From Eutreptiella sp. 'Long Island Sound 2002' (lineage: Eukaryota; Euglenozoa; Euglenophyceae; Eutreptiales; Eutreptiaceae): DNA of 64,000 bases. The notes under the pieces were generated by a model, which made no database searches, had not been told where the DNA came from, and was given only the letters and a program-made list of their open reading frames with translations. Positions 30,201-64,000 of this stretch are shown in pieces (positions within the stretch are counted from its first letter, which is position 1; every line of letters starts with the position of its first letter). The stretch spans positions 13,909,629 through 13,973,628 of the forward strand of contig OZ038380.1 of NCBI GenBank assembly GCA_964036045.1, written 5' to 3'. Both the position numbers and the translations under genes were made by a program.

Positions 30201-30903
30201 AGGTGTCCACCCTGTGCTGGGACGGGTGGAGCGTGGGGGTCATGTCCTCCTCGCCGCCTGCCGCGGCCCTTCGGAAGCCGCAGGCTTCCCAGCCCGCTCG
30301 GAAATGCTCCGTGGCCGGGTTGGCGGGGACATCCATGTAGATGTTGGTGTCGCCGGCGATGACCACCGGGTGCCTCCCGCCGAGGCTGCGTGCCGTGGCA
30401 TACATTTGTATGTCGGCCCAGAACGCCGCCCGTCCCGCCCACGGGGAGCAGCCTGCTTGCGGCCCGTGGACGTTGATGAGGGTGAGGCCTCCCCCGTCCG
30501 TGCGGATCTCCAGGGCCGCGGCCTTCCCGGGGACAATTTCCGTGAAGCTGAGCACCTCGTGCTCCGCCACGTACTTGCTGCTGACCGCGGTGAGGAGGCC
30601 CCCCCCTCTCGAGGTGGAGGTGGCCCCCGTCTCCGCCAGCCGGCTGCTGAAGTAGGCGGTGTACCCCTTGTCCCGGAGCGCCGCGGCCACGTGCATCTCC
30701 TGCGCCCTGGTGGCGATCCCCGTTTCCTGGAGCATGATGGCAAAGCCCCCCTCCTGGGGCAGCATGCCGGTGATGAGGTGCTCCTTGTCGGTGCAGGCCG
30801 CCGGCCCCCGGCGCCGCCGGAGTGTGTCCCGGAGGGACCGGTCTGGCGGCACGAGGCCGTTGCGCAGGTTCCACGAGAGGAGCCACAGGGCGTCGCCCGT
30901 CAT
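24222..30903 (-). CDS. LINE-B ORF2: APE endonuclease, reverse transcriptase, RNase H-like, zinc fingers (two frameshifts)
   Basis: ATG at 30903, 12 nt after the ORF1 stop. The N-terminal APE-type endonuclease has all expected motifs: LSWNLRNG, LQET, GDTN, RVDTFL and GSDHLPV (about 30880-30080). The RT (about 29090-28330) has FDARKAFDT, GVRQGNPESP and YIDD near 28495. The frame shifts by -1 near 27650-27690 and continues with an RNase H-like domain (about 26665-26220: an Asp strand AADLT, DAEVILHLL, HKADWAAS; the third acidic residue is unclear) and a zinc knuckle CLFCGGPEETPVHMHVGC near 25930-25985. A second -1 shift near 24930 leads to a C-terminal Cys cluster (CRLCGEC...CARC) and the stop at 24222. 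The shifts may be decay, or homopolymer errors in the read assembly. Confidence 0.85.
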
Positions 30904-34612: not shown

Positions 34613-34699
34613 TGCTGTGTCGCTGTGTCTAAGAGCAGGGGGTTGGGTGCGGATGTCCCGTGGCTGGTGCGTTGGTGCGCTGGTGCGTTGCTCGGTGTG

Positions 34700-37600: not shown

Positions 37601-39040
37601 GTCGATGCGGGCGTGTGGACCCAGCACCGGCCCCACAGCGTGCGCCCTTGCGGGCCGGCGTTGCTCGCTGTGGGGGTGGCGGAAGGGCGTCCCCGGGGGG
37701 GGGTGCCTTCCACCGTTGTGAGGGGCGCCTTGGTGTCAGGCGCTGTCCCTCCCCCGGCCGCTCGTCCTCCGGAGCGTGCAGCCAGGGTTCTGCGACCCGT
37801 GTGTCCCGGGTGCGGTCGATGCGGGCGTGTGGACCCAGCACCGGCCCCACAGCGTGCGCCCTTGCGGGCCGGCGTTGCTCGCTGTGGGGGTGGCGGAAGG
37901 GCGTCCCCGGGAGGGGTGCCTTCCACCGTTGTGAGGGGCGCCTGGTGTCAGGCGCTGTCCCTTCCCCGGCCGCTCGTCCTCCGGAGCGTGCAGCCAGGGT
38001 TCCGCGACCCGCGTGTCCCGGGTGCGGTCGATGCGGGCGTGTGGACCCAGCACCGGCCCCACAGCGTGCGCCCTTGCGGGCCGGCGTTGCTCGCTGTGGG
38101 GGTGGCGGAAGGGCGTCCCCGGGGGGGGGTGCCTTCCACCGTTGTGAGGGGCGCCTGGTGTCAGGCGCTGTCCCTCCCCCGGCCGCTCGCCCTCCGGAGC
38201 GTGCAGCCAGGGTTCCGCGACCCGTGTGTCCCGGGTGCGGTCGATGCGGGCGTGTGGACCCAGCACCGGCCCCACAGCGTGCGCCCTTGCGGGCCGGCGT
38301 TGCTCGCTGTGGGGGTGGCGGAAGGGCGTCCACGGGGGGGGTGCCTTCCACCGTTGTGAGGGGCGCCTGGTGTCAGGCGCTGTCCCTCCCCCGGCCGCTC
38401 GTCCTCCGGAGCGTGCAGCCAGGGTTCCGCGACCCGTGTGTCCCGGGTGCGGTCGATGCGGGCGTGTGGACCCAGCACCGGCCCCACAGCGTGCGCCCTT
38501 GCGGGCCGGCGTTGCTCGCTGTGGGGGTGGCGGAAGGGCGTCCCCGGGGGGGGTGCCTTCCACCGTTGTGAGGGGCGCCTGGTGTCAGGCGCTGTCCCTC
38601 CCCCGGCCGCTCGTCCTCCGGAGCATGCAGCCAGGGTTCCGCGACCCGTGTGTCCCGGGTGCGCTCGATGCGGGCGTGTGGACCCAGCACCGGCCCCACA
38701 GCGTGCGCCCTTGCGGGCCGGCGTTGCTCGCTGTGGGGGTGGCGGAAGGGCGCCCCCGGGGGGGGCTGCCTTCCACCGTTGTGAGGGGCGCTTGGTGCCA
38801 GGCGCTGTCCCTCCCCCGGCCGCCCGTCCTCCGGAGCGTGCAGCCAGCGTTCCGCGACCCGTGTGTCCCGGGCGCGGTCGGTGCGGGCGTGGGGACCCAG
38901 CACCGGCCCCACAGCGTGCGCCCTTGCGGGCCGGCGTTGCTCGCTGTGGGGGTGGCGGAAGGGCGTCCCCGGGGGGGGTGCCTTCCACCATTGTGAGGGG
39001 CGCTTGGGGTCAGGCGCTGTCCCTCTCCCGTCTGCCCGCC
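34700..39040 (-). repeat. LINE-B 5' monomer array (about 20 copies of 212 bp)
   Basis: About twenty head-to-tail copies of a 212-213 bp unit. The marker GTGTCAGGCGCTGT recurs at 34969, 35181, 35394, 35606 and so on to about 39008, with a diverged copy at about 34755 next to ORF1. Copies are more than 90% alike by eye; those at both ends are the most diverged. The array lies directly upstream of ORF1 on the element strand. This is the position of the roughly 200-bp promoter monomers of mouse L1, so a promoter role is a reasonable inference. Long ORFs run through it in several frames only because it is GC-rich and stop-poor. Confidence 0.88.
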
Positions 39041-40140: not shown

Positions 40141-40522
40141 GGGTGGGAGTGCAGGAGGGCTGGGGGGGGGGGGGCTACAACCAGTCCTAATGCGACCCAT
40201 CCCCCAACTATCTTTCAAAACTGGAGCGGGGGGGGCAGTTGGGGGGGGGGGGGTCCAGCCGGGGGTGGGGGGCGGGGGTTGTTCCTGTCGGGGGTCGGGA
40301 AGTCAAGGGGGCGTCCAGCCAGGGGTGCCACCTTGACCTGGGGGGCAGGGGGGGGGTCCTGGTGAGGGTTGCTGTTGCTGTTGCTGCCTCCGTTCAGATA
40401 GTGGAGGATACTATCCACATGCACATCCCATGGACTTGGAAAAGAGAGTACGACAAAACTTGCAGGACAAAACCTGCAGCACAAAACACTCAGAGGGTAT
40501 AGCTGCTGATATACAGGCATAC
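40141..40522. other. G-rich spacer between LINE-A and the SRCR exon
   Basis: Contains several runs of 7-13 G on the + strand and a short CTGTTGCTGTTGCTGCCTCCG microsatellite-like stretch. It translates on the minus strand as Pro-rich sequence, but the SRCR exon has a good donor site just before it, so it is probably intron. Confidence 0.4.
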
Positions 40523-40903
40523 CATCACACTCAACTCTTGCGTCCATGACAGGGTCACCATTCCCATGTACACAAGCATAGAACTGGACAGTTTGAGCTC
40601 CTCCAACGGTCACCTGGGCGTATTGACCCCTGCCATTATGCGAGCAATGTGCCAGGCTTGATTCACTTCCTGTGCACCACAGCCCATGCAGCCAAATTTG
40701 CTGGTTGGGATCAGTTGACGGAAACGCATTTTTCACTGTGCCACCCTGCAGTCCCAGCTGACGGCAGATCACGGCGGCCTCAATAGGACCAAACCGGTTC
40801 GCACAAACAGTGCCCCAGATGTCTTGGTACTTCACCTCTACGGGTCCACTGATGGGACGTCCATCCCTTATCATTCCGTCCATGAGTCTGATGGGAATCG
40901 CAT
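40523..40903 (-). CDS. SRCR-domain exon of a surface or secreted protein (partial gene)
   Basis: A 381-bp exon on the minus strand, bounded by an acceptor (TTCTCATCAG, exon begins at 40903) and a donor (GTATGC, intron begins at 40522). It encodes one scavenger receptor cysteine-rich domain: IRLMDG, then DIWGTVCANRF, AAVICRQLG, LHGLWCTGSESSLAHCSH, YACVHG and ARVECD. Six cysteines in this spacing fit SRCR group A. Such domains are extracellular ligand-binding modules in animal and many algal and protist proteins. The rest of the gene should lie further up the minus strand (right side) and beyond the donor. Neither end of the gene was identified. Confidence 0.75.
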
Positions 40904-41641
40904 CTGATGAGAAGAGCACGGTGTTCAGGCACTTGCAAACACAATTCTTCAACGATTCGCAGCAGAAGCACTGGATTCTACCAACCACATCCGGCTTGCA
41001 CACGAATGCAATCCACCATGAACAGGTGTGAGCGAGCAAGAAAATCTGGGGGCACATGTGACAGCACCTGGAAGGTGTGTAGGGCTTGCAGATGCCAGAA
41101 AGGAAAGAACAGCCCACGGCCAGATCTTTGCAATGGCCGCAGATGCGAAAAAAGTCGTGTCACAAGCTCAACAGATGCAGAAACAAACTCTTGTCAAAAC
41201 CAAACTTTCACGTGGCACGAGCAGCTCGGTCAGTGGTCAGGCTTAACCAGGCTCCCAGGTGCTCTGATATACCCCTTTGCTCCTTGCAGTTACAGCCCAT
41301 GATCTAGGTCTACTCGAAGATCACTACTTGAAAGATTTTGCATTGTAGAGGAATAAGGTTCTGGGCTGCTCAGGGGTGCCTAAAAAAACGAAAGAGTTCC
41401 TGACACATACAAACACAAAGCCCAGAGCACTTCTTCTCAGTTAATGATCCAAAGAAGCACATTGGTAAGCTGGTAATCTGGTGAGTCTCATAACCACTGA
41501 GTCTTTCAACACAGTAGCGGACAGGCAGATTGTGTATCCGGACTGTCCATGACCCAAAACATCAAGCATGTGTTGAAACTCAAAGCAAGCTGCATCCTCT
41601 GTTTGTCATAACACAAAAACTTGCATGTGCACCCTGAAAGT

Positions 41642-46353: not shown

Positions 46354-48144
46354 TCACGCCTTCGTATGGTATGCCCCAACTGGCACAGTACTGTCCTTGA
46401 ATGAAAGGCCACAAGGGGTGGTCTGAGAACTGAACCTCATCAAGATGGCATCCAGCTCAGCATCGACAGATTTGGGGAGTTTACTGAGCCCTCGATAGAA
46501 GCTTCGAATTCTGTCAGCCTCTGCTTGCCACTCTTTCTGATCAACGCGGAAAAGCTTTTGAAGGGTTTGAGCAGACATCTCAAGACCCTTGGTATCCAGT
46601 GCACCTGCAGGCGGCACAAACCCAAGAGGGGTGCGCAGAACTTGCCCAGACCCCTCCACACGCTCCCAGATCCACTTCAGAACACGTGAGTTCTCTCCAA
46701 AACCAGGCCACATAATGTGATTATTCTCATCTTCCTTGAAGAAGTTCATGTGGAAGACCTTTGGCAAGTTGTACCCAAGGTCCTCGCGGAGTGCATCCCA
46801 TTGAGAAATGTAATCATTCATGTTAATTCCACAGTGCAGCGACATTGCAAACGGATCATATTTCACCATGTCAGCTGCCCTTGTGGACAGAGTAGCACCC
46901 AGCGTCATTCCAGCGAGCCAGTGGTACGCTTCATGCACCAACGGCAGGGTGTCCTTACGACGACTACCAAAAACGAATGCCGAAATTGGAACTCCGTGTG
47001 GATGGTTGCTGTCAGGGTCCATCACAGGACAATTGCTGTGTGGAGTGAGGTAGCGGCTGTTCCAGTGTGCAGCAGGGGTGCCACTTCCTGAGGTCCAAGG
47101 CTTGCCTTGCCAGTCAATGATGGACCTGGGGGCATCATTGGTCAGTCCCTCCCACCAAACACCTCCATCTGCCGTAACAGCGACGTTGCTGAATATAGTG
47201 TTCGACTTGATGGTCTCAATGATCCCGGGATCTCTGGCCATAGAGCGACCGCCAGCAGAACCTGAGAAACCGTCCTCCGGATTGACCGCATACAGACGAC
47301 CATCGCGGCCAATGTACAGCCATGCAATGTCATCACTAACACACGTAACTTTCCATCCAGGGATTGTTGGCACCATCATAGCGAGTCCCGTCTTGCCGCA
47401 GTTGGGTGGCATCAGCAGGCACATGTAATGCTTGGTACCGGCAGGTGGTTGCACTCCAATGACCGCACATCTGGAAACGAGGAACTTTTCATGTTGAGAA
47501 ATGACTGAACCAAGTCTCAGCGCGAAACATGACTTAGACATGACACTATTCGCTCCGTACATGCTGCCATAAGACCAAAGCTCGGCAGTGTCGTTGAACT
47601 GGGCCACCATTCGCTTTTGAGGGTCACAGGGCCATGGCACATCACACTGACCAGACGCCAACGGGACCCCCACTGAGTGGACACACTGGACGAACGGCTG
47701 GTCCTTGGCTAGGACGTGCAACACCTGGGATCCCATTCTGGTAGTTGCCCGCAAACCAAGAACAGCATAAAGAGAATCGGTAATTTGGATGCCAACCTTC
47801 GAGAGCTTGCAGTCGATAGGGCCCAAACAGAATGGAACAACGTACATTGTGCGACCCTTCATGGACGCCTCAAACAGAGACGCAATTTTTTCCTTCATCT
47901 TGTTTGGGTCTTCCCAATTGTTCAGAGGACCAACTTCCTCTTGATTCTTAGAACAAACAAATACCTCTTTGGAATGCCACACAGCATCGTTGGGATTGGA
48001 TTGGGCGACGAAGCTGTTCGGATGCTTAGCAGCAGCCAATCTAACGAAAGTACCCTGTTGCACTAGTTTGTCACAAAAGAAGCTGTATTCAGCATCGGAA
48101 CCATTGCACCAATGAACAGCATCAGGGGCCAGAAATTCTTTCAT
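46354..48144 (-). other. PEPCK unit 10: divergent C-terminal unit, probable pseudoenzyme
   Basis: 596 residues with the full PEPCK layout but far from units A and B. Aligned by eye, the substrate-binding Arg of VARVE is Trp (AVWHSK, near 47975), the Lys of GKKC that ligates the metal is Ser (SKSC, near 47535), and the metal-ligating His of AEHC is Arg (VSRC, near 47470). The P-loop is PPNCGKTG, the Asp pair (SDDIAW) is kept, and [10 protein letters not shown] is kept. In the vertebrate numbering I recall, these are R87, K244 and H264. Nucleotide binding may survive while catalysis should not. The chain ends AYHTKA with no peroxisomal signal. Confidence 0.85.
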
Positions 48145-51100
48145 ACTTTCTACCCAGGACAACAGAGCGCCACTTTGGGTCAGAGCCACCGTAGTTGCTG
48201 ACCCACGGAGACGACCTTCCAACTCATCCAAATTGTGCAGCAAAATTTCAGGCAACCGTTCACCAAACTGGTTGTAATACTTGCGAACCTCTGGGATTTC
48301 CTTCAGCCAGCCTTCAGTGTCCACACTCAACAAATGCGCCATCTCAGCTGGAGTGGTGTCAATGCCATCGGTGTCCAGTGCGTCTACTGTTGGCAGATAT
48401 CCAAGCGGTGTGGGGCGGGCTTTGCCAGTGCCATCCACACGCTCACACACCCACTTCAACACACGGGAATTCTCCCCAAAACCAGGCCAGATGAATCGCC
48501 CTTCAGCATCTGCTTGGAACCAATTGGTGTAGAAGATCTTGGGTGCAAGATAGCCAAGCTTTTCGCGGAAGTTCACCCAGTGTCCAAAGTAATCAGCCAT
48601 ATTGTAGCCACAGAATGGCAGCATGGCAAATGGATCACGGCGCACAGCACCAACGGTGCCCTCTGCTGCAGCCGTCAACTGAGAGCCGATAATGGATCCC
48701 ATGAACACACCATGCTTCCAGCTGAAAGCTTCCGTCACCAATGGCACCAGGTTCGGGCGGCGACCTCCAAACAGAATGGCACAGATGGGCACACCCTTCG
48801 GATTCTCCCACTCAGGATCAATCACAGGGCACTGAGATGCAGGCGTCGTGTACCGTGCATTTGGGTGTGCAGCCTTGCGACCACAGTCTGGGGTCCACGG
48901 CTGGCCAGTCCAATCAATCAGGCCTTCGGGGGCGGTCTTGGTCATGCCCTCCCACCACACATCACCATCTGGGGTCAGCGCAACATTTGTGAAGATGCAG
49001 TTCTTCTCCAATGTCTGCATTGCACTCAGATTGGACTTGTTCGATGTGCCTGGTGCCACCCCAAAGAACCCAGACTCAGGGTTGATGGCATACAGCCTGC
49101 CATCCTCTCCCACGTGCATCCAGGCGATGTCATCTCCCACACAACGCACCTTCCAGCCGGGAACGGACGGAACCAGCATTGCAAGATTGGTCTTGCCACA
49201 GGCACTCGGGAAGGCTGCAACAATGTAGTATTCCTTGCCCTCTGGTGATGTCAGCCCCAAGATCAAGCAATGCTCTGCCAGCCAGCCCTCCTTGCGGGCC
49301 ATGGTGGATGCAATGCGCAGGGCATAGCACTTCTTGCCCAGCAGCGCGTTGCCTCCATATCCACTGCCAAACGACCACACACTGGGTTCTTCAGGGAAGT
49401 GCACAATCCAGCGGTTGTCAGGGTTGCATGGCCAGGGAACATCCTTTGCACCTGGTGCCACAGGCTTGCCCACAGAGTGCAGGCACTTCAGGAACGGCGT
49501 CTTCTCGTCAATCAGACGCAGCACCTTGGTGCCAATGCGGCACATGATCTTCATATTCACCACCACGTATGCAGAGTCCGTGATCTCAACACCAAACTTG
49601 GAGTATGGTGATCCAAGGGGTCCCATGCAGAATGGAATCACGTACATGGTGCGCCCTTCCATGCATCCCTTGAACAATCCAATCAGCTTCTTCTTCATCT
49701 CCACAGGATCAGCCCAATTGTTCGTCGGACCAGCGTCATCCTTGTCGGTGGTGCAGATAAACGTCTGCTTCTCAACACGGGCAACATCCGCAGGGTCCGA
49801 TCGGCAGAGGAAACTGTTTGGGCGCTTCTTCTCGTTCAGCCGAATGAACGTACCACCCTTCACCATCAACTCACAAAGCTCAGCATACTCCTCATCGGTG
49901 CCGGTGGCCCACCGCACATGGGCGGGCTTGCACATGTCTCGCATCTCACTCACCCACTGCAGCAAATCTTCGTTGGAAAGAGGAATGTGTGCAGAAGACT
50001 GTAAACGACTCTCCAGCTTCTCCAGAGCCTGCGTCAGCTCAACAGGAACACGATCTCCAAACTGGGCATAATACTTCTGAACCTCTGGGATTTCCTTCAG
50101 CCAGCCTTCAGTGTCCACACTCAACAAATGCGCCATCTCAGCTGGAGTGGTGTCAATGCCATCGGTGTCCAGTGCGTCTACTGTTGGCAGATATCCAAGC
50201 GGTGTGGGGCGGGCTTTGCCAGTGCCATCCACACGCTCACACACCCACTTCAACACACGGGAATTCTCCCCAAAACCAGGCCAGATGAATCGCCCTTCAG
50301 CATCTGCTTGGAACCAATTGGTGTAGAAGATCTTGGGTGCAAGATAGCCAAGCTTCTTGCGGAAGTTCACCCAGTGTCCAAAGTAATCAGCCATATTGTA
50401 GCCACAGAATGGCAGCATAGCAAATGGATCACGGCGCACAGCACCAACGGTGCCCTCTGCTGCAGCCGTCAACTGAGAGCCGATAATGGATCCCATGAAC
50501 ACACCATGCTTCCAGCTGAAAGCTTCCGTCACCAATGGCACCAGGTTCGGGCGGCGACCTCCAAACAGAATGGCACAGATGGGCACACCCTTCGGATTCT
50601 CCCACTTAGGATCAATCACAGGGCACTGAGATGCAGGCGTCGTGTACCGTGCATTTGGGTGTGCAGCCTTGCGACCACAGTCTGGGGTCCACGGCTGGCC
50701 AGTCCAATCAATCAGGCCTTCGGGGGCGGTCTTGGTCATGCCCTCCCACCACACATCACCATCTGGGGTCAGCGCAACATTTGTGAAGATGGAGTTCTTC
50801 TCCAATGTCTGCATTGCACTCAGATTGGACTTGTTCGATGTGCCTGGTGCCACCCCAAAGAACCCAGACTCAGGGTTGATGGCATACAGCCTGCCATCCT
50901 CTCCCACGTGCATCCAGGCGATGTCATCTCCCACACAACGCACCTTCCAGCCGGGAACGGACGGAACCAGCATTGCAAGATTGGTCTTGCCACAGGCACT
51001 CGGGAAGGCTGCAACAATGTAGTATTCCTTGCCCTCTGGTGATGTCAGCCCCAAGATCAAGCAATGCTCTGCCAGCCAGCCCTCCTTGCGGGCCATGGTG

Positions 51101-54100
51101 GATGCAATGCGCAGGGCATAGCACTTCTTGCCCAGCAGCGCGTTGCCTCCATATCCACTGCCAAACGACCACACACTGGGTTCTTCAGGGAAGTGCACAA
51201 TCCAGCGGTTGTCAGGGTTGCATGGCCAGGGAACATCCTTTGCACCTGGTGCCACAGGCTTGCCCACAGAGTGCAGGCACTTCAGGAACGGCGTCTTCTC
51301 GTCAATCAGACGCAGCACCTTGGTGCCAATGCGGCACATGATCTTCATGTTCACCACCACGTATGCAGAGTCCGTGATCTCAACACCAAACTTGGAGTAT
51401 GGTGATCCAAGGGGTCCCATGCAGAATGGAATCACGTACATGGTACGCCCTTCCATGCATCCCTTGAACAGTCCAATCAGCTTCTTCTTCATCTCCACAG
51501 GATCAGCCCAATTGTTCGTCGGACCAGCATCATCCTTGTCGGTGGTGCAGATAAACGTCTGCTTCTCAACACGGGCAACATCCGCAGGGTCCGATCGGCA
51601 GAGGAAACTGTTTGGGCGCTTCTTCTCGTTCAGCCGAATGAACGTACCACCCTTCACCATCAACTCACAAAGCTCAGCATACTCCTCATCGGTGCCGGTG
51701 GCCCACCGCACATGGGCGGGCTTGCACATGTCTCGCATCTCCTGCACCCATGAAATCAGCGCCTGGTTGTTCGTGGGGACAACATCAACAGAACCCAAAC
51801 GCTTCTCCAGGCTGTCCAGCTCCTCAACCAATGCTGCAGGCAACCTCTTGCCAAACTGCTTGTAGTACTCACGAACACCACTGATCTCGGCAAACCACTC
51901 CTTAGGGTCAACCGTCAGCAACCTGCTCATACTGCTGACATTGAATTCATCTTCCAACCCACTGATATCAATGCTGTCGATGGTGGGCACCTGACCAATG
52001 GGGGTCATCACGCTGTGGCCAGTCGGATTGCGTCCCAATCGCTCGCAGACCCACTTTAATACACGCGAGTTCTCTCCAAAACCAGGCCAGATGAACGATC
52101 CCTTTTCGTCCCGTCTGAACCAGTTCACAAAGAAAATCTTGGGCATGTTGTACCCCAGCTTGTGGCGGAACTGCGCCCAGTGGTTGAAGTAATCTCCCAT
52201 ATTGTACCCACAGAACGGAAGCATGGCAAACGGATCGCGCCGCACACTGCCCACCGTGCCCTCAGCTGCAGCAGTGAGCTCAGATCCAATGATGGAGCCC
52301 ATGAACACACCCTGCGACCAGGTGAAAGCCTCGGTCACCAGTGGGACAACCGAATTGCGTCGCCCTCCAAACAGAATGGCGTCAATGGGCACACCCATCG
52401 GGTTCTCCCACTCAGGATCAATCACAGGGCACTGAGATGCAGGCGTCGTGTACCGCGCATTCGGGTGTGCAGCCTTGCGACCACAGTCTGGGGTCCAGGG
52501 CAGACCAGTCCAATCGATCAATGACTCTGGGGCCGTCTTGGTCATGCCCTCCCACCACACATCACCATCTGGGGTCAAGCCGACATTGGTAAAGATGGAG
52601 TTCTTCTTCAATGTCTGCATTGCACTCAGGTTGGACGAGTTGGATGTGCCTGGTGCCACCCCAAAGAACCCAGACTCAGGGTTGATGGCATACAGCCTGC
52701 CATCCTCTCCCACGTGCATCCAGGCGATGTCATCTCCCACACACTGCACTTGCCATCCGGGAATCGTTGGCACCAGCATTGCAAGATTGGTCTTGCCACA
52801 GGCACTCGGGAAACCGGCTGCAACATAGTGCTTCTTGCCCTCCGGCGACGTCAGCCCCAAGATCAAGCAATGCTCTGCCAGCCAGCCCTCCTTGCGGGCC
52901 AACGTGGATGCAATCCGCAGGGCATAGCACTTCTTGCCCAGCAGCGCGTTGCCTCCATATCCACTGCCAAACGACCACACACTGGGCTCCTCGGAGAAAT
53001 GCACAATGTACCGGTTGTCAGGGTTGCATGGCCAGGGAACATCCTTTGCACCAGCTTTGAGTGGCATGCCCACAGAGTGCAGGCACTTCAGGAAAAATGT
53101 ATCCTCTCCAATCGCACGCAACACCTTGGTGCCAATGCGGCACATGATCTTCATGTTCACCACCACGTATGCAGAGTCCGTGATCTCAACACCAAATTTG
53201 GAGTATGGCGAATTGAGTGGTCCCATGCAGAATGGAATCACGTACATGGTACGCCCTTCCATGCATCCCTTGAACAGTCCAATCAGCTTCTTCTTCATCT
53301 CCACAGGATCAGCCCAATTGTTCGTCGGACCAGCGTCATCCTTGTCGGTGGTGCAGATAAACGTCTGCTTCTCAACACGGGCAACATCCGCAGGGTCCGA
53401 TCGGCAGAGGAAACTGTTTGGGCGCTTCTTCTCGTTCAGCCGAATGAACGTACCACCCTTCACCATCAACTCACAAAGCTCAGCATACTCCTCATCGGTG
53501 CCGGTGGCCCACCGCACATGGGCGGGCTTGCACATGTCTCGCATCTCACTCACCCACTGCAGCAACTGTTTGTTGTGGATGGGGACATCAGCAGAGGCCT
53601 TCAACCGACTCTCCAGCTTCTCCAGAGCCTGCGTCAGCTCAACAGGAACACGATCTCCAAACTGGGCATAATACTTCTGAACCTCTGGGATTTCCTTCAG
53701 CCAGCCTTCAGTGTCCACACTCAACAAATGCGCCATCTCAGCTGGAGTGGTGTCAATGCCATCGGTGTCCAGTGCGTCTACTGTTGGCAGATATCCAAGC
53801 GGTGTGGGGCGGGCTTTGCCAGTGCCATCCACACGCTCACACACCCACTTCAACACACGGGAATTCTCCCCAAAACCAGGCCAGATGAATCGCCCTTCAG
53901 CATCTGCTTGGAACCAATTGGTGTAGAAGATCTTGGGTGCAAGATAGCCAAGCTTCTTGCGGAAGTTCACCCAGTGTCCAAAGTAATCAGCCATATTGTA
54001 GCCACAGAATGGCAGCATAGCAAATGGATCACGGCGCACAGCACCAACGGTGCCCTCTGCTGCAGCCGTCAACTGAGAGCCGATAATGGATCCCATGAAC

Positions 54101-57100
54101 ACACCATGCTTCCAGCTGAAAGCTTCCGTCACCAATGGCACCAGGTTCGGGCGGCGACCTCCAAACAGAATGGCACAGATGGGCACACCCTTCGGATTCT
54201 CCCACTTAGGATCAATCACAGGGCACTGAGATGCAGGCGTCGTGTACCGTGCATTTGGGTGTGCAGCCTTGCGACCACAGTCTGGGGTCCACGGCTGGCC
54301 AGTCCAATCAATCAGGCCTTCGGGAGCGGTCTTGGTCATGCCCTCCCACCACACATCACCATCTGGGGTCAGCGCAACATTTGTGAAGATGGAGTTCTTC
54401 TCCAATGTCTGCATTGCACTCAGATTGGACTTGTTGGATGTGCCTGGTGCCACCCCAAAGAACCCAGACTCAGGGTTGATGGCATACAGCCTGCCATCCT
54501 CTCCCACGTGCATCCAGGCGATGTCATCTCCCACACAACGCACCTTCCAGCCGGGAACGGACGGAACCAGCATTGCAAGATTGGTCTTGCCACAGGCACT
54601 CGGGAAGGCTGCAACAATGTAGTATTCCTTGCCCTCTGGTGATGTCAGCCCCAAGATCAAGCAATGCTCTGCCAGCCAGCCCTCCTTGCGGGCCATGGTG
54701 GATGCAATGCGCAGGGCATAGCACTTCTTGCCCAGCAGCGCGTTGCCTCCATATCCACTGCCAAACGACCACACACTGGGTTCTTCAGGGAAGTGCACAA
54801 TCCAGCGGTTGTCAGGGTTGCATGGCCAGGGAACATCCTTTGCACCTGGTGCCACAGGCTTGCCCACAGAGTGCAGGCACTTCAGGAACGGCGTCTTCTC
54901 GTCAATCAGACGCAGCACCTTGGTGCCAATGCGGCACATGATCTTCATGTTCACCACCACGTATGCAGAGTCCGTGATCTCAACACCAAACTTGGAGTAT
55001 GGTGATCCAAGGGGTCCCATGCAGAATGGAATCACGTACATGGTACGCCCTTCCATGCATCCCTTGAACAGTCCAATCAGCTTCTTCTTCATCTCCACAG
55101 GATCAGCCCAATTGTTCGTCGGACCAGCATCATCCTTGTCGGTGGTGCAGATAAACGTCTGCTTCTCAACACGGGCAACATCCGCAGGGTCCGATCGGCA
55201 GAGGAAACTGTTTGGGCGCTTCTTCTCGTTCAGCCGAATGAACGTACCACCCTTCACCATCAACTCACAAAGCTCAGCATACTCCTCATCGGTGCCGGTG
55301 GCCCACCGCACATGGGCGGGCTTGCACATGTCTCGCATCTCCTGCACCCATGAAATCAGCGCCTGGTTATTCGTGGGGACAACATCAACAGAACCCAAAC
55401 GCTTCTCCAGGCTGTCCAGCTCCTCAACCAATGCTGCAGGCAACCTCTTGCCAAACTGCTTGTAGTACTCACGAACACCACTGATCTCGGCAAGCCACTC
55501 CTTAGGGTCAACCGTCAGCAACCTGCTCATACTGCTGACATTGAATTCATCTTCCAACCCACTGATATCAATGCTGTCGATGGTGGGCACCTGACCAATG
55601 GGGGTCATCACGCTGTGGCCAGTCGGATTGCGTCCCAATCGCTCGCAGACCCACTTTAATACACGCGAGTTCTCTCCAAAACCAGGCCAGATGAACGATC
55701 CCTTTTCGTCCCGTCTGAACCAGTTCACAAAGAAAATCTTGGGCATGTTGTACCCCAGCTTGTGGCGGAACTGCGCCCAGTGGTTGAAGTAATCTCCCAT
55801 ATTGTACCCACAGAACGGAAGCATGGCAAACGGATCGCGCCGCACACTGCCCACCGTGCCCTCAGCTGCAGCAGTGAGCTCAGATCCAATGATGGAGCCC
55901 ATGAACACACCCTGCGACCAGGTGAAAGCCTCGGTCACCAGTGGGACAACCGAATTGCGTCGCCCTCCAAACAGAATGGCGTCAATGGGCACACCCATCG
56001 GGTTCTCCCACTCAGGATCAATCACAGGGCACTGAGATGCAGGCGTCGTGTACCGCGCATTCGGGTGTGCAGCCTTGCGACCACAGTCTGGGGTCCAGGG
56101 CAGACCAGTCCAATCGATCAATGACTCTGGGGCCGTCTTGGTCATGCCCTCCCACCACACATCACCATCTGGGGTCAAGCCGACATTGGTAAAGATGGAG
56201 TTCTTCTTCAATGTCTGCATTGCACTCAGGTTGGACGAGTTGGATGTGCCTGGTGCCACCCCAAAGAACCCAGACTCAGGGTTGATGGCATACAGCCTGC
56301 CATCCTCTCCCACGTGCATCCAGGCGATGTCATCTCCCACACACTGCACTTGCCATCCGGGAATCGTTGGCACCAGCATTGCAAGATTGGTCTTGCCACA
56401 GGCACTCGGGAAACCGGCTGCAACATAGTGCTTCTTGCCCTCCGGCGACGTCAGCCCCAAGATCAAGCAATGCTCTGCCAGCCAGCCCTCCTTGCGGGCC
56501 AACGTGGATGCAATCCGCAGGGCATAGCACTTCTTGCCCAGCAGCGCGTTGCCTCCATATCCACTGCCAAACGACCACACACTGGGCTCCTCGGAGAAAT
56601 GCACAATGTACCGGTTGTCAGGGTTGCATGGCCAGGGAACATCCTTTGCACCAGCTTTGAGTGGCATGCCCACAGAGTGCAGGCACTTCAGGAAAAATGT
56701 ATCCTCTCCAATCGCACGCAACACCTTGGTGCCAATGCGGCACATGATCTTCATGTTCACCACCACGTATGCAGAGTCCGTGATCTCAACACCAAATTTG
56801 GAGTATGGCGAATTGAGTGGTCCCATGCAGAATGGAATCACGTACATGGTACGCCCTTCCATGCATCCCTTGAACAGTCCAATCAGCTTCTTCTTCATCT
56901 CCACAGGATCAGCCCAATTGTTCGTCGGACCAGCGTCATCCTTGTCGGTGGTGCAGATAAACGTCTGCTTCTCAACACGGGCAACATCCGCAGGGTCCGA
57001 TCGGCAGAGGAAACTGTTTGGGCGCTTCTTCTCGTTCAGCCGAATGAACGTACCACCCTTCACCATCAACTCACAAAGCTCAGCATACTCCTCATCGGTG

Positions 57101-60100
57101 CCGGTGGCCCACCGCACATGGGCGGGCTTGCACATGTCTCGCATCTCACTCACCCACTGCAGCAACTGTTTGTTGTGGATGGGGACATCAGCAGAGGCCT
57201 TCAACCGACTCTCCAGCTTCTCCAGAGCCTGCGTCAGCTCAACAGGAACACGATCTCCAAACTGGGCATAATACTTCTGAACCTCTGGGATTTCCTTCAG
57301 CCAGCCTTCAGTGTCCACACTCAACAAATGCGCCATCTCAGCTGGAGTGGTGTCAATGCCATCGGTGTCCAGTGCGTCTACTGTTGGCAGATATCCAAGC
57401 GGTGTGGGGCGGGCTTTGCCAGTGCCATCCACACGCTCACACACCCACTTCAACACACGGGAATTCTCCCCAAAACCAGGCCAGATGAATCGCCCTTCAG
57501 CATCTGCTTGGAACCAATTGGTGTAGAAGATCTTGGGTGCAAGATAGCCAAGCTTCTTGCGGAAGTTCACCCAGTGTCCAAAGTAATCAGCCATATTGTA
57601 GCCACAGAATGGCAGCATAGCAAATGGATCACGGCGCACAGCACCAACGGTGCCCTCTGCTGCAGCCGTCAACTGAGAGCCGATAATGGATCCCATGAAC
57701 ACACCATGCTTCCAGCTGAAAGCTTCCGTCACCAATGGCACCAGGTTCGGGCGGCGACCTCCAAACAGAATGGCACAGATGGGCACACCCTTCGGATTCT
57801 CCCACTTAGGATCAATCACAGGGCACTGAGATGCAGGCGTCGTGTACCGTGCATTTGGGTGTGCAGCCTTGCGACCACAGTCTGGGGTCCACGGCTGGCC
57901 AGTCCAATCAATCAGGCCTTCAGGAGCGGTCTTGGTCATGCCCTCCCACCACACATCACCATCTGGGGTCAGCGCAACGTTTGTGAAGATGGAGTTCTTC
58001 TCCAATGTCTGCATTGCACTCAGATTGGACTTGTTCGATGTGCCTGGTGCCACCCCAAAGAACCCAGACTCAGGGTTGATGGCATACAGCCTGCCATCCT
58101 CTCCCACGTGCATCCAGGCGATGTCATCTCCCACACAACGCACCTTCCAGCCGGGAACGGACGGAACCAGCATTGCAAGATTGGTCTTGCCACAGGCACT
58201 CGGGAAGGCTGCAACAATGTAGTATTCCTTGCCCTCTGGTGATGTCAGCCCCAAGATCAAGCAATGCTCTGCCAGCCAGCCCTCCTTGCGGGCCATGGTG
58301 GATGCAATGCGCAGGGCATAGCACTTCTTGCCCAGCAGCGCGTTGCCTCCATATCCACTGCCAAACGACCACACACTGGGTTCTTCAGGGAAGTGCACAA
58401 TCCAGCGGTTGTCAGGGTTGCATGGCCAGGGAACATCCTTTGCACCTGGTGCCACAGGCTTGCCCACAGAGTGCAGGCACTTCAGGAACGGCGTCTTCTC
58501 GTCAATCAGACGCAGCACCTTGGTGCCAATGCGGCACATGATCTTCATGTTCACCACCACGTATGCAGAGTCCGTGATCTCAACACCAAACTTGGAGTAT
58601 GGTGATCCAAGGGGTCCCATGCAGAATGGAATCACGTACATGGTACGCCCTTCCATGCATCCCTTGAACAGTCCAATCAGCTTCTTCTTCATCTCCACAG
58701 GATCAGCCCAATTGTTCGTCGGACCAGCATCATCCTTGTCGGTGGTGCAGATAAACGTCTGCTTCTCAACACGGGCAACATCCGCAGGGTCCGATCGGCA
58801 GAGGAAACTGTTTGGGCGCTTCTTCTCGTTCAGCCGAATGAACGTACCACCCTTCACCATCAACTCACAAAGCTCAGCATACTCCTCATCGGTGCCGGTG
58901 GCCCACCGCACATGGGCGGGCTTGCACATGTCTCGCATCTCCTGCACCCATGAAATCAGCGCCTGGTTATTCGTGGGGACAACATCAACAGAACCCAAAC
59001 GCTTCTCCAGGCTGTCCAGCTCCTCAACCAATGCTGCAGGCAACCTCTTGCCAAACTGCTTGTAGTACTCACGAACACCACTGATCTCGGCAAGCCACTC
59101 CTTAGGGTCAACCGTCAGCAACCTGCTCATACTGCTGACATTGAATTCATCTTCCAACCCACTGATATCAATGCTGTCGATGGTGGGCACCTGACCAATG
59201 GGGGTCATCACGCTGTGGCCAGTCGGATTGCGTCCCAATCGCTCGCAGACCCACTTTAATACACGCGAGTTCTCTCCAAAACCAGGCCAGATGAACGATC
59301 CCTTTTCGTCCCGTCTGAACCAGTTCACAAAGAAAATCTTGGGCATGTTGTACCCCAGCTTGTGGCGGAACTGCGCCCAGTGGTTGAAGTAATCTCCCAT
59401 ATTGTACCCACAGAACGGAAGCATGGCAAACGGATCGCGCCGCACACTGCCCACCGTGCCCTCAGCTGCAGCAGTGAGCTCAGATCCAATGATGGAGCCC
59501 ATGAACACACCCTGCGACCAGGTGAAAGCCTCGGTCACCAGTGGGACAACCGAATTGCGTCGCCCTCCAAACAGAATGGCGTCAATGGGCACACCCATCG
59601 GGTTCTCCCACTCAGGATCAATCACAGGGCACTGAGATGCAGGCGTCGTGTACCGCGCATTCGGGTGTGCAGCCTTGCGACCACAGTCTGGGGTCCAGGG
59701 CAGACCAGTCCAATCGATCAATGACTCTGGGGCCGTCTTGGTCATGCCCTCCCACCACACATCACCATCTGGGGTCAAGCCGACATTGGTAAAGATGGAG
59801 TTCTTCTTCAATGTCTGCATTGCACTCAGGTTGGACGAGTTGGATGTGCCTGGTGCCACCCCAAAGAACCCAGACTCAGGGTTGATGGCATACAGCCTGC
59901 CATCCTCTCCCACGTGCATCCAGGCGATGTCATCTCCCACACACTGCACTTGCCATCCGGGAATCGTTGGCACCAGCATTGCAAGATTGGTCTTGCCACA
60001 GGCACTCGGGAAACCGGCTGCAACATAGTGCTTCTTGCCCTCCGGCGACGTCAGCCCCAAGATCAAGCAATGCTCTGCCAGCCAGCCCTCCTTGCGGGCC

Positions 60101-63100
60101 AACGTGGATGCAATCCGCAGGGCATAGCACTTCTTGCCCAGCAGCGCGTTGCCTCCATATCCACTGCCAAACGACCACACACTGGGCTCCTCGGAGAAAT
60201 GCACAATGTACCGGTTGTCAGGGTTGCATGGCCAGGGAACATCCTTTGCACCAGCTTTGAGTGGCATGCCCACAGAGTGCAGGCACTTCAGGAAAAATGT
60301 ATCCTCTCCAATCGCACGCAACACCTTGGTGCCAATGCGGCACATGATCTTCATGTTCACCACCACGTATGCAGAGTCCGTGATCTCAACACCAAATTTG
60401 GAGTATGGCGAATTGAGTGGTCCCATGCAGAATGGAATCACGTACATGGTACGCCCTTCCATGCATCCCTTGAACAATCCAATCAGCTTCTTCTTCATCT
60501 CCACAGGATCAGCCCAATTGTTCGTCGGGCCAGCATCATCCTTGTCGGTGGTGCAGATAAACGTCTGCTTCTCAACACGGGCAACATCCGCAGGGTCCGA
60601 TCGGCAGAGGAAACTGTTTGGGCGCTTCTTCTCGTTCAGCCGAATGAACGTACCACCCTTCACCATCAACTCACAAAGCTCAGCATACTCCTCATCGGTG
60701 CCGGTGGCCCACCGCACATGGGCGGGCTTGCACATGTCTCGCATCTCACTCACCCACTGCAGCAACTGTTTGTTGTGGATGGGGACATCAGCAGAGGCCT
60801 TCAACCGACTCTCCAGCTTCTCCAGAGCCTGCGTCAGCTCAACAGGAACACGATCTCCAAACTGGGCATAATACTTCTGAACCTCTGGGATTTCCTTCAG
60901 CCAGCCTTCAGTGTCCACACTCAACAAATGCGCCATCTCAGCTGGAGTGGTGTCAATGCCATCGGTGTCCAGTGCGTCTACTGTTGGCAGATATCCAAGC
61001 GGTGTGGGGCGGGCTTTGCCAGTGCCATCCACACGCTCACACACCCACTTCAACACACGGGAATTCTCCCCAAAACCAGGCCAGATGAATCGCCCTTCAG
61101 CATCTGCTTGGAACCAATTGGTGTAGAAGATCTTGGGTGCAAGATAGCCAAGCTTCTTGCGGAAGTTCACCCAGTGTCCAAAGTAATCAGCCATATTGTA
61201 GCCACAGAATGGCAGCATAGCAAATGGATCACGGCGCACAGCACCAACGGTGCCCTCTGCTGCAGCCGTCAACTGAGAGCCGATAATGGATCCCATGAAC
61301 ACACCATGCTTCCAGCTGAAAGCTTCCGTCACCAATGGCACCAGGTTCGGGCGGCGACCTCCAAACAGAATGGCACAGATGGGCACACCCTTCGGATTCT
61401 CCCACTTAGGATCAATCACAGGGCACTGAGATGCAGGCGTCGTGTACCGTGCATTTGGGTGTGCAGCCTTGCGACCACAGTCTGGGGTCCACGGCTGGCC
61501 AGTCCAATCAATCAGGCCTTCGGGAGCGGTCTTGGTCATGCCCTCCCACCACACATCACCATCTGGGGTCAGCGCAACATTTGTGAAGATGGAGTTCTTC
61601 TCCAATGTCTGCATTGCACTCAGATTGGACTTGTTCGATGTGCCTGGTGCCACCCCAAAGAACCCAGACTCAGGGTTGATGGCATACAGCCTGCCATCCT
61701 CTCCCACGTGCATCCAGGCGATGTCATCTCCCACACAACGCACCTTCCAGCCGGGAACGGACGGAACCAGCATTGCAAGATTGGTCTTGCCACAGGCACT
61801 CGGGAAGGCTGCAACAATGTAGTATTCCTTGCCCTCTGGTGATGTCAGCCCCAAGATCAAGCAATGCTCTGCCAGCCAGCCCTCCTTGCGGGCCATGGTG
61901 GATGCAATGCGCAGGGCATAGCACTTCTTGCCCAGCAGCGCGTTGCCTCCATATCCACTGCCAAACGACCACACACTGGGTTCTTCAGGGAAGTGCACAA
62001 TCCAGCGGTTGTCAGGGTTGCATGGCCAGGGAACATCCTTTGCACCTGGTGCCACAGGCTTGCCCACAGAGTGCAGGCACTTCAGGAACGGCGTCTTCTC
62101 GTCAATCAGACGCAGCACCTTGGTGCCAATGCGGCACATGATCTTCATGTTCACCACCACGTATGCAGAGTCCGTGATCTCAACACCAAACTTGGAGTAT
62201 GGTGATCCAAGGGGTCCCATGCAGAATGGAATCACGTACATGGTACGCCCTTCCATGCATCCCTTGAACAGTCCAATCAGCTTCTTCTTCATCTCCACAG
62301 GATCAGCCCAATTGTTCGTCGGACCAGCATCATCCTTGTCGGTGGTGCAGATAAACGTCTGCTTCTCAACACGGGCAACATCCGCAGGGTCCGATCGGCA
62401 GAGGAAACTGTTTGGGCGCTTCTTCTCGTTCAGCCGAATGAACGTACCACCCTTCACCATCAACTCACAAAGCTCAGCATACTCCTCATCGGTGCCGGTG
62501 GCCCACCGCACATGGGCAGGCTTGCACATGTCTCGCATCTCCTGCACCCATGAAATCAGCGCCTGGTTATTCGTGGGGACAACATCAACAGAACCCAAAC
62601 GCTTCTCCAGGCTGTCCAGCTCCTCAACCAATGCTGCAGGCAACCTCTTGCCAAACTGCTTGTAGTACTCACGAACACCACTGATCTCGGCAAGCCACTC
62701 CTTAGGGTCAACCGTCAGCAACCTGCTCATACTGCTGACATTGAATTCATCTTCCAACCCACTGATATCAATGCTGTCGATGGTGGGCACCTGACCAATG
62801 GGGGTCATCACGCTGTGGCCAGTCGGATTGCGTCCCAATCGCTCGCAGACCCACTTTAATACACGCGAGTTCTCTCCAAAACCAGGCCAGATGAACGATC
62901 CCTTTTCGTCCCGTCTGAACCAGTTCACAAAGAAAATCTTGGGCATGTTGTACCCCAGCTTGTGGCGGAACTGCGCCCAGTGGTTGAAGTAATCTCCCAT
63001 ATTGTACCCACAGAACGGAAGCATGGCAAACGGATCGCGCCGCACACTGCCCACCGTGCCCTCAGCTGCAGCAGTGAGCTCAGATCCAATGATGGAGCCC

Positions 63101-64000
63101 ATGAACACACCCTGCGACCAGGTGAAAGCCTCGGTCACCAGTGGGACAACCGAATTGCGTCGCCCTCCAAACAGAATGGCGTCAATGGGGACCCCATTGG
63201 GGTTTCCCCATTGAGGATCGATCACGGGGCACTGAGATGCAGGCGTCGTGTACCGCGCATTCGGGTGTGCAGCCTTGCGACCACAGTCTGGGGTCCAGGG
63301 CAGACCAGTCCAATCGATCAATGACTCTGGGGCCGTCTTGGTCATGCCCTCCCACCACACATCACCATCTGGGGTCAAGCCGACATTGGTAAAGATGGAG
63401 TTCTTCTTCAATGTCTGCATTGCACTCAGGTTGGACGAGTTGGATGTGCCTGGTGCCACCCCAAAGAACCCAGACTCAGGGTTGATGGCATACAGCCTGC
63501 CATCCTCTCCCACGTGCATCCAGGCGATGTCATCTCCCACACACTGCACTTGCCATCCGGGAATCGTTGGCACCAGCATTGCAAGATTGGTCTTGCCACA
63601 GGCACTCGGGAAACCGGCTGCAACATAGTGCTTCTTGCCCTCCGGCGACGTCAGCCCCAAGATCAAGCAATGCTCTGCCAGCCAGCCCTCCTTGCGGGCC
63701 AACGTGGATGCAATCCGCAGGGCATAGCACTTCTTGCCCAGCAGCGCGTTGCCTCCATATCCACTGCCAAACGACCACACACTGGGCTCCTCGGAGAAAT
63801 GCACAATGTACCGGTTGTCAGGGTTGCATGGCCAGGGAACATCCTTTGCACCAGCTTTGAGTGGCATGCCCACAGAGTGCAGGCACTTCAGGAAAAATGT
63901 ATCCTCTCCAATCGCACGCAACACCTTGGTGCCAATGCGGCACATGATCTTCATGTTCACCACCACGTATGCAGAGTCCGTGATCTCAACACCAAATTTG
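46354..64000 (-). CDS. Giant tandem GTP-dependent phosphoenolpyruvate carboxykinase polyprotein (5' end beyond window)
   Basis: One uninterrupted minus-strand frame from the right edge to TGA at 46354-46356, more than 5880 codons and without introns. The frame is already open at the edge, so the true start lies outside. It holds one partial and nine complete units of about 600 residues, each the length of a whole GTP-type PEPCK (oxaloacetate + GTP to PEP + CO2 + GDP). Every complete unit except the last has the family signatures: [15 protein letters not shown] with the metal-binding Lys, AEHCLILG with the metal-binding His, FPSACGKTN (P-loop with the active-site Cys), VGDDIAWM with the metal-binding Asp, and [10 protein letters not shown]. 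No membrane or targeting segment is visible in the part seen. The product would exceed 640 kDa. It may be cleaved or work as a chain. Confidence 0.93.
48145..49944 (-). other. PEPCK unit 9 (B-like, not part of the strict alternation)
   Basis: A 600-residue unit of B type that directly follows another B unit, breaking the A-B order. It carries private changes ([25 protein letters not shown]), and its C-terminal linker ([14 protein letters not shown]...) leads into the divergent last unit. All catalytic motifs are present. Confidence 0.85.
49945..62538 (-). repeat. 3600-bp A-B super-repeat within the PEPCK gene
   Basis: Taking Met of MRDMCK as unit start, boundaries fall at 62538, 60744, 58938, 57144, 55338, 53544, 51738 and 49944. 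B units (62538-60745, 58938-57145, 55338-53545, 51738-49945) are 1794 bp. A units (60744-58939, 57144-55339, 53544-51739) are 1806 bp; the partial unit at the window edge is also A. All lengths are multiples of three. Copies of the same type differ at only a few bases per unit. A and B share almost identical first 110-120 codons but are clearly diverged in their C-terminal halves ([34 protein letters not shown]). Confidence 0.93.

What the first reader, a model, noticed from the sequence alone, without database searches (positions are those of the whole stretch)
46354..64000. A single frame encodes at least ten tandem PEPCK enzymes
GTP-PEPCK is normally a monomeric enzyme of about 600-630 residues. 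Here nine full units and one partial unit follow each other in one intron-free frame with no stop and no long spacer, and the frame runs off the window. Tandem enzyme polyproteins are known in some protists, but I know of no ten-fold PEPCK. A metabolic chain of this size could localise flux, be processed to monomers, or raise dosage.
Basis: partly seen in the sequence, partly recalled or inferred. Interest (0 to 1): 0.93.

Follow-up and report, generated by a model that had tools for sequence, protein, structure and literature searches.

The report
Twelve-unit PEPCK chain with degenerate ends
A euglenid gene encodes twelve copies of the metabolic enzyme PEP carboxykinase in one giant protein, with ten intact-looking enzymes in the middle and a degenerate copy at each end, a layout that recurs in shorter chains from other eukaryotes.

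Summary
On the minus strand, window 46354-63999 is one stop-free frame with nine full and one partial GTP-PEPCK units. In the parent assembly it runs on to 12 units, 7213 aa and 798 kDa, with no intron needed. A second locus has 8 units and 534 kDa.

These are not twelve equal enzymes. Units 2-11 keep all 21 catalytic positions checked; units 1 and 12 have lost the metal-ligand lysine and histidine and the active-site lid, yet unit 12 is nearly as constrained as the inner units. Inner units are of two types: cap-A'-(A-B)n-B'-cap, n=4 and 2. So the layout predates the euglenid expansion.

The organism is a photosynthetic euglenid. Known Euglena polyproteins are plastid-targeted and cut at linkers; this chain shows neither feature. 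I judge it most likely an uncut giant enzyme. Expression, activity and non-cleavage are not shown.

The parts
46354..63999 (-). Stop-free frame of the PEPCK chain (part inside the window; whole frame is C3:13955982-13977725)
62593..63999 (-). Unit 3, type A, partial (first ~129 residues lie outside the window)
   Evidence: all 21 catalytic positions kept in the full unit
60796..62583 (-). Unit 4, type B
   Evidence: 21 of 21 positions kept
58993..60786 (-). Unit 5, type A
   Evidence: 21 of 21 positions kept
57196..58983 (-). Unit 6, type B
   Evidence: 21 of 21 positions kept
55393..57186 (-). Unit 7, type A
   Evidence: 21 of 21 positions kept
53596..55383 (-). Unit 8, type B
   Evidence: 21 of 21 positions kept
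51793..53586 (-). Unit 9, type A
   Evidence: 21 of 21 positions kept
49996..51783 (-). Unit 10, type B
   Evidence: 21 of 21 positions kept
48205..49986 (-). Unit 11, type B' (last catalytic-type unit)
   Evidence: 21 of 21 positions kept
46426..48186 (-). Unit 12, C-terminal cap: PEPCK domain with K244 to S, H264 to R, S286 to P, R87 to W and no omega-lid TAAAEG
   Evidence: Pfam PEPCK_GTP 398 bits; C3 versus C4 dN/dS 0.089 with dS near saturation
46354..46356 (-). Stop codon of the chain

Best explanation
This is a GTP-PEPCK, probably cytosolic, of a photosynthetic euglenid, translated as one ~798 kDa chain of twelve PEPCK domains and, most likely, working uncut. Ten inner units (A', four A-B pairs, B') look catalytic. 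The first and last units are catalytically degenerate end caps. The layout descends from a shorter capped chain (cap-A-B-cap); amplification of the A-B pair between A' and B' gave 12 units here and 8 at a second locus, and recombination homogenised the repeats. I infer that A and B contact different neighbours through their C-terminal thirds and that the caps close the ends of this packing. Likely roles are OAA to PEP for gluconeogenesis on acetate or ethanol, and PEP to OAA carboxylation in anaerobic wax-ester fermentation. Shown here: sequence, layout, residues kept and lost, selection on the coding sequence, sorting of units by position. Inferred: translation, non-cleavage, packing, location, metabolic role.
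For: Twelve domains in one frame, 3-6 residues apart; the junction continues as an ordinary PEPCK N-terminus, as in chain 4wie. K244 is kept in 0 of 14 first units and 0 of 19 last units, and in 50 of 51 inner units; the exception, P0142_4, is a last unit that my script misfiled. C3 versus C4 dN/dS is 0.071-0.078 for four inner pairs and 0.089 for the C-cap, all with dS of 1.45 or more. In the C-terminal third, in 14 of 14 genes A and B of the same chain are farther apart than each is from its nearest same-position unit elsewhere; in the middle third own A-B is closer in 6 of 14. Euglenid first caps group with the first caps of P0127, P0129 and P0130 (support 100) and euglenid last caps with their last caps (89). 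In the same genome an RbcS array carries recurrent linkers of the type AASSSTSYWAMAGTTGEK at many junctions, not seen between PEPCK units. The N-terminus has no strongly hydrophobic stretch. An unnamed metagenome protein, P0133, is 94.7% identical to the end of the C4 chain over 1776 aa. Transcript ORFs labelled complete, with four units, are in EukProt (P0124, P0126). PEPCK in Euglena is reported as cytosolic and GTP-specific (PMC6630311, passages) and involved in anaerobic CO2 fixation (PMC5036851, passages). Recalled only, not verified: a 1988 report of native Euglena PEPCK forms near 760 and 550 kDa, close to the predicted 798 and 534 kDa.
Against: No transcript, peptide or activity was seen for this gene. 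The AlphaFold model of A-B failed (pLDDT 43.6, pTM 0.33) and that of B'-cap gave well-scored domains but pTM 0.52, so no confident orientation: packing has no structural support. Across all sources neither the first nor the last caps form one clade in the best tree (first and last units of P0124, P0126 and P0147 mix); a single origin of each is not rejected (AU p 0.166, 0.411, both together 0.105), and long branches may mislead. H264 is kept in 7 of 14 first and 3 of 19 last units and D311 in 18 of 19 last units, so 'dead' is a prediction. A protease could cut without a conserved linker. A mitochondrial proteome recovered a PEPCK at low enrichment (PMC7403612, passages); PMC6630311 mentions an isoform predicted for the chloroplast and no PEPCK in autotrophic cells; PMC5036851 calls the enzyme ADP- or GDP-dependent.
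Confidence: 0.6

Rival explanations
1. Processed polyprotein: the chain is a precursor cut into PEPCK monomers, as for the RbcS, LHC and plastid PGK polyproteins of Euglena.
For: Euglena makes such polyproteins (PMC7729029, passages), and this genome has RbcS arrays in long frames. Some RbcS junctions here lack the long linker, so a short junction does not by itself exclude cutting.
Against: The known ones are plastid-targeted and carry decapeptide linkers. Here there are 3-6 residues between domains, and the only recurrent junction motif, PTxN, belongs to the normal PEPCK N-terminus; no strongly hydrophobic N-terminus. Degenerate end units kept under constraint are hard to explain if all units are released as monomers.
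Confidence: 0.17
2. Dosage only: repeated unequal exchange multiplied the enzyme in one frame, with no function for the chain itself.
For: A-B pairs of C3 are 98.8% to 99.8% identical and their number differs between loci, and the genome holds many decayed PEPCK repeats.
Against: The caps and the A/B sorting are shared with eukaryotes that have only four units, and the C-cap stays under purifying selection.
Confidence: 0.15
3. Assembly artefact: separate genes or fewer copies were merged into one frame.
For: Near-identical repeats are hard to assemble; no reads were available.
Against: No two A-B pairs are identical, the array is bounded by distinct A', B' and caps, and a second locus on another contig, at synonymous divergence near saturation, has the same layout.
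Confidence: 0.04
4. Untranslated relic: the frame is open but the gene is dead.
For: Many decayed PEPCK fragments lie elsewhere in the genome; no expression data.
Against: A 21.7 kb frame without a stop, and dN/dS of 0.07-0.09 between the two loci. The 20 array units are stop-free, while all but one of the other listed matches contain stops.
Confidence: 0.04

Closest known systems
GTP-dependent PEP carboxykinase (PF00821 / PF17297), PDB 4wie and rat 2qew (organism of these entries recalled)
   Same: Each unit is a nearly full-length homologue; inner units keep the catalytic set
   Different: The known enzyme is a single-domain protein of ~600 residues; here twelve are fused end to end and two are degenerate
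Euglena plastid polyproteins (RbcS, LHC, chloroplast PGK)
   Same: Tandem near-identical units in one frame in a euglenid
   Different: Those are plastid-targeted and cut at decapeptide linkers; the PEPCK chain shows no such linker and no strongly hydrophobic N-terminus, its end units are degenerate and its inner units are of two types
Four-unit PEPCK proteins of mostly unnamed eukaryotes (P0123, P0124, P0126-P0132)
   Same: Low-high-high-low unit scores, K244 and lid lost in both end units, A and B sorting by position in the C-terminal third; caps of P0127, P0129 and P0130 group by position with the euglenid caps
   Different: Four units, not 8 or 12; most have no name in the database; one is filed under Schistocerca gregaria, which I suspect is contamination
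Three-unit PEPCKs of Porphyridium (P0140, P0144) and chytrids (P0135, P0136)
   Same: Tandem full-length PEPCK units
   Different: They branch apart from the capped group. Of the 9 units in P0135, P0136 and P0140, 6 keep all 21 positions, 2 differ at one and 1 at two; P0144 unit 1 is degenerate
PEPCK-like subunit NDUEG2 of Euglena complex I (PMC10884005, passages)
   Same: A euglenid PEPCK fold judged unlikely to be functional
   Different: It is compared there with the E. coli and T. brucei enzymes (ATP type, recalled) and is a complex I subunit, not a chain end

Membership tests
GTP-PEPCK | Full-length PEPCK_N plus PEPCK_GTP homology | tested here: met
   12 of 12 units of C3 and 8 of 8 of C4 match an HMM of 26 single units over nearly its whole length; Pfam hits on part of unit 12, the only stretch of the chain given to Pfam; PDB GTP-PEPCKs at E 1e-180 or better for two inner stretches
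GTP-PEPCK | Catalytic residues (K244, H264, D311, P-loop, R405 and others; rat numbering and roles recalled) | tested here: met
   Met for inner units only: units 2-11 of C3 and 2-7 of C4 keep 21 of 21; units 1 and 12 of C3 and 1 and 8 of C4 do not
GTP-PEPCK | Measured GTP-dependent activity | not testable with these tools
   No assay. GTP specificity of the Euglena activity is reported in PMC6630311 (passages); PMC5036851 says ADP- or GDP-dependent
Euglena processed polyprotein | Tandem units in one frame | tested here: met
Euglena processed polyprotein | Conserved cleavage linkers between units | tested here: not met
   3-6 residues at 18 of 18 junctions of C3 and C4; the recurrent PTxN next to many of them is part of the normal N-terminus, also in 4wie; RbcS in the same genome has long recurrent linkers at many junctions
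Euglena processed polyprotein | Plastid-targeting N-terminus | tested here: not met
   Highest 15-residue hydropathy in the first 120 residues 0.39 (C3) and 0.71 (C4); start codon assumed and no targeting predictor was run. The 34 in-frame codons before Met35 do hold a hydrophobic stretch
Euglena processed polyprotein | Actual proteolytic processing | not testable with these tools
   No protein data
Capped PEPCK chain (cap-A-B-cap) | Degenerate first and last unit with K244 lost | tested here: met
   0 of 14 first and 0 of 19 last units keep K244; ten partial units (some of them terminal) were dropped before the inner count
Capped PEPCK chain (cap-A-B-cap) | Inner units sort by position as A and B | tested here: met
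   C-terminal third 14 of 14 genes; N-terminal third 12 of 14 (not C3 and C4); middle third 6 of 14; C-third tree; A-specific GRN-P loop in 13-14 of 14. On whole units the euglenid A and B group with each other
Capped PEPCK chain (cap-A-B-cap) | First caps one lineage, last caps another | tested here: inconclusive
   Supported between the euglenid and P0127, P0129, P0130 (100 and 89); not recovered over all sources, not rejected either (AU p 0.166, 0.411; both 0.105)

The most novel reading that the evidence does not exclude
The euglenid PEPCK is a covalent enzyme filament: a giant uncut chain in which paired A and B enzymes pack into a repeating structure, closed at both ends by pseudoenzyme caps, and whose length (8 or 12 units, ~534 or ~798 kDa) is tuned by amplifying the A-B pair, giving two isoforms used in different growth modes.
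Probability: 0.35. Interest if true: 0.93.

Novelty: new variant of a known kind. Interest (0 to 1): 0.82.

Why it matters
PEPCK is a textbook single-domain enzyme. A selected chain of two to ten active-type units between degenerate ends would be a new way to build a metabolic enzyme, in a group used for wax and paramylon production where PEPCK is tied to CO2 fixation under anaerobiosis. If cytosolic and uncut, it would also be a counterexample to the known Euglena polyproteins, which are plastid precursors cut to monomers. The two loci and the shorter relatives make the questions (is it cut, what do the caps do, why two unit types) directly testable.

Tried and rejected
Structure: the A-B pair (A1, 13 rows) gave no usable model. 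B'-cap (A2, 16 rows) gave two well-scored domains with undetermined orientation. No fold search was run on either, since homology is clear from sequence.

Introns hidden in the frame: none is needed. Misassembly from identical pairs: weakened, no two pairs identical. Other PEPCK loci as working monomers: the stretches that I fetched from C11, C10, C1252 and C18 look like broken B'-plus-cap repeats (match pattern for all; frame translations printed for C11 only). The others were seen only as match rows, and C21, C2 and C17 were not read.

Viral contigs: 8 loci with a match of about one unit's length, not looked at further. ATP-type PEPCK (PF01293) in the genome: not completed.

Literature: ten searches of the open-licence library showed no title or listed abstract on multi-unit PEPCK; the listings are capped, most listed papers were not opened, and subscription papers are not covered. 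Passages seen without use for the argument: PMC12455990, PMC5174102, PMC8219788, PMC10161547. The 1988 paper on native Euglena PEPCK (Plant Physiol 86:457) is not held; its masses are my recollection only. Species: the GGOE01 label of P0007 is recalled as Euglena longa. The 2024 E. gracilis assembly has no chromosome above 121.4 Mb (PMC11252322, outline and section 4) while C3 here is 190 Mb, so the species is not settled.

Full report
What is there. The minus-strand frame 63999-46354 has no stop before 46354-46356 and no ambiguous base. Anchored on a conserved motif it splits into units of 602 and 598 residues in alternation, then a 600-residue unit and a divergent last one. In that register A units are 99.2-100% identical in DNA, B units 98.4-99.8%, A to B ~82%. 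The assembly that holds the window (2.28 Gb, 2205 contigs) puts it at C3:13909629-13973628, and the frame there is 7247 aa long. Reading on into the next stretch shows an upstream stop just beyond C3:13977725 and the first Met at codon 35, giving 7213 aa and 797.9 kDa. An HMM of 25 single-unit proteins (bacterial where named) plus one eukaryotic unit finds 12 domains, each nearly full length. The window therefore holds units 3 (part) to 12.

A second array. Contig C4 carries a 4829-aa frame with 8 units, 534 kDa from its first Met. By unit the order is cap, A', A, B, A, B, B', cap; the window's gene is cap, A', (A, B) four times, B', cap. Between the loci pS is 0.64-0.77, close to saturation; dN/dS is 0.071-0.078 for four inner pairs and 0.089 for the C-cap; for the N-cap dS could not be computed. 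Within a locus the ratios between neighbouring or A-B units are higher, 0.23-0.52, at low dS. The four A-B pairs differ by 6-43 of 3600 nt, the two C4 pairs by 53. Of 99 matches in the genome, the 20 in the two arrays have no stop. Of the other listed rows one (C18, query residues 191-594) has none and the rest have stops. Stretches from four of these other contigs look like broken B'-plus-cap repeats.

End caps. I checked 21 catalytic positions (names, roles and rat numbering recalled). All ten inner units of C3 and all six of C4 keep all 21. Unit 1 of C3 lacks K244 and has R for H264, E for D311, K for R405; unit 12 has S for K244, R for H264, P for S286, W for R87 and S for F333; both lack the TAAAEG lid. 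With relatives included, K244 is kept in 0 of 14 first and 0 of 19 last units but in 50 of 51 inner ones; the exception, P0142_4, carries the same residues as the C-cap P0141_3 and was misfiled by my script. Ten partial units were dropped before the inner count. Other losses are less uniform: H264 is kept in 7 of 14 first and 3 of 19 last units, D311 in 1 of 14 and 18 of 19. Dead is therefore a prediction, not a measurement. Caps evolve faster than inner units (69.3% and 72.9% identity between the loci versus 82-85%). The C-cap gives well-scored PEPCK-like secondary structure in the prediction of B'-cap.

Old layout. Database proteins of ~2340-2450 aa (P0123, P0124, P0126-P0132; 9 proteins) have four units with low-high-high-low scores. 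In the 3235-10290 aa range only two proteins were found, both unnamed multi-enzyme fusions, so no chain as long as this was seen. The search for shorter chains scored only the 8000 candidates sharing most words and listed 120 of 271 hits. The C-terminal third of A and B sorts by position: in 14 of 14 genes own A-B is farther than both same-position neighbours. In the middle third own A-B is closer than both in 6 and farther in 6; in the N-terminal third closer in 2 (the two euglenid loci) and farther in 12. I read this as gene conversion of the catalytic middle while the C-terminal ends, with an A-specific GRN-P loop, are held apart, as expected if A and B have different neighbours. For the caps I tested the trees again (50 units, LG+F+G4). 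The euglenid first caps group with the first caps of P0127, P0129 and P0130 (100), and the euglenid last caps with their last caps (89). Over all sources first and last caps do not form two clean clades: units of P0124, P0126 and P0147 mix, several nodes are at 59-66, and the AU test rejects neither arrangement (0.166 for first, 0.411 for last, 0.105 for both). So a capped chain older than the split of the euglenid from these three sources is supported; a single origin for all capped chains is open. Three-unit forms in Porphyridium and chytrids branch elsewhere, so fusion may have arisen more than once.

Organism. The euglenid spliced leader occurs 3283 times against 0 for the reversed pattern; the same leader is printed for Eutreptiella and stated as identical to that of E. 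gracilis (PMC3621762, abstract and passages). Flagellar-rod proteins are present, 39 matches, none in 14 control genomes. RbcS arrays in long frames lie on C11 and C14. I take it as a photosynthetic euglenid; its species is open.

How it works. Known Euglena polyproteins are plastid precursors freed by cutting decapeptide linkers (PMC7729029, passages). The RbcS frame on C14 has recurrent linkers at many junctions, though not at all. The PEPCK chain joins a normal C-terminus to a normal N-terminus with 3-6 residues between the domain matches, and from its first Met it has no strongly hydrophobic stretch. I therefore favour an uncut, probably cytosolic chain (0.6). PEPCK activity in Euglena is reported as cytosolic, GTP-specific, seen on acetate or ethanol and not in autotrophic cells (PMC6630311, passages), though another paper calls it ADP- or GDP-dependent and ties it by inhibitor work to anaerobic CO2 fixation (PMC5036851, passages). 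I recall, without having been able to check it, a 1988 report of two very large native Euglena PEPCK forms near 760 and 550 kDa. If right, these may be the 12- and 8-unit chains.

Limits. No transcript, peptide, read or assay for this locus was available. Relative packing of units is unsupported. Copy number is the assembly's. That I know of no print on multi-unit PEPCK rests on the searches listed under Tried and rejected, in an open-licence library, with most listed papers not opened.

Noticed in passing
window 4639-9693 (+): Ty3-type retroelement remains: reverse transcriptase with RNase H, then a frame with integrase-core (below Pfam cut-off) and chromodomain matches.
   Followed up: no
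window 13882-15723 (-) and 27433-30903 (-): Two LINE-like frames with reverse transcriptase; the second also has an endonuclease domain.
   Followed up: no
window 34685-39030: GC-rich 212-bp tandem repeat, ~20 copies at 96% match, inside a 16-40 kb block of 64-77% GC with many long overlapping frames; four of five such frames tested have no Pfam hit.
   Followed up: partly
window 40218-41117 (-): Frame with a scavenger-receptor cysteine-rich (SRCR) domain, some 5 kb from the end of the PEPCK gene.
   Followed up: no
G000 C10, C11, C18, C1252 (L013-L017): Dispersed decayed PEPCK repeats that look derived from the B'-cap end, on C11 as ~6 kb tandem copies beside repetitive DNA.
   Followed up: partly
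L026 (G000:C14:2151500-2158500): RbcS polyprotein array whose frame is split into 517 and 1642 aa parts; some junctions have the SYWAMAG linker and some do not.
   Followed up: partly
proteins P0158-P0167, P0169 and many of P0170-P0240: PEPCKs of ~1040-1070 aa carrying GAPDH-domain or aminotransferase-domain Pfam labels, bacterial where named: recurrent fusions of PEPCK with other enzymes.
   Followed up: no
protein P0132: A capped four-unit PEPCK filed under Schistocerca gregaria; it groups with unnamed entries and not with the animal protein P0157, so possibly contamination of that assembly.
   Followed up: no
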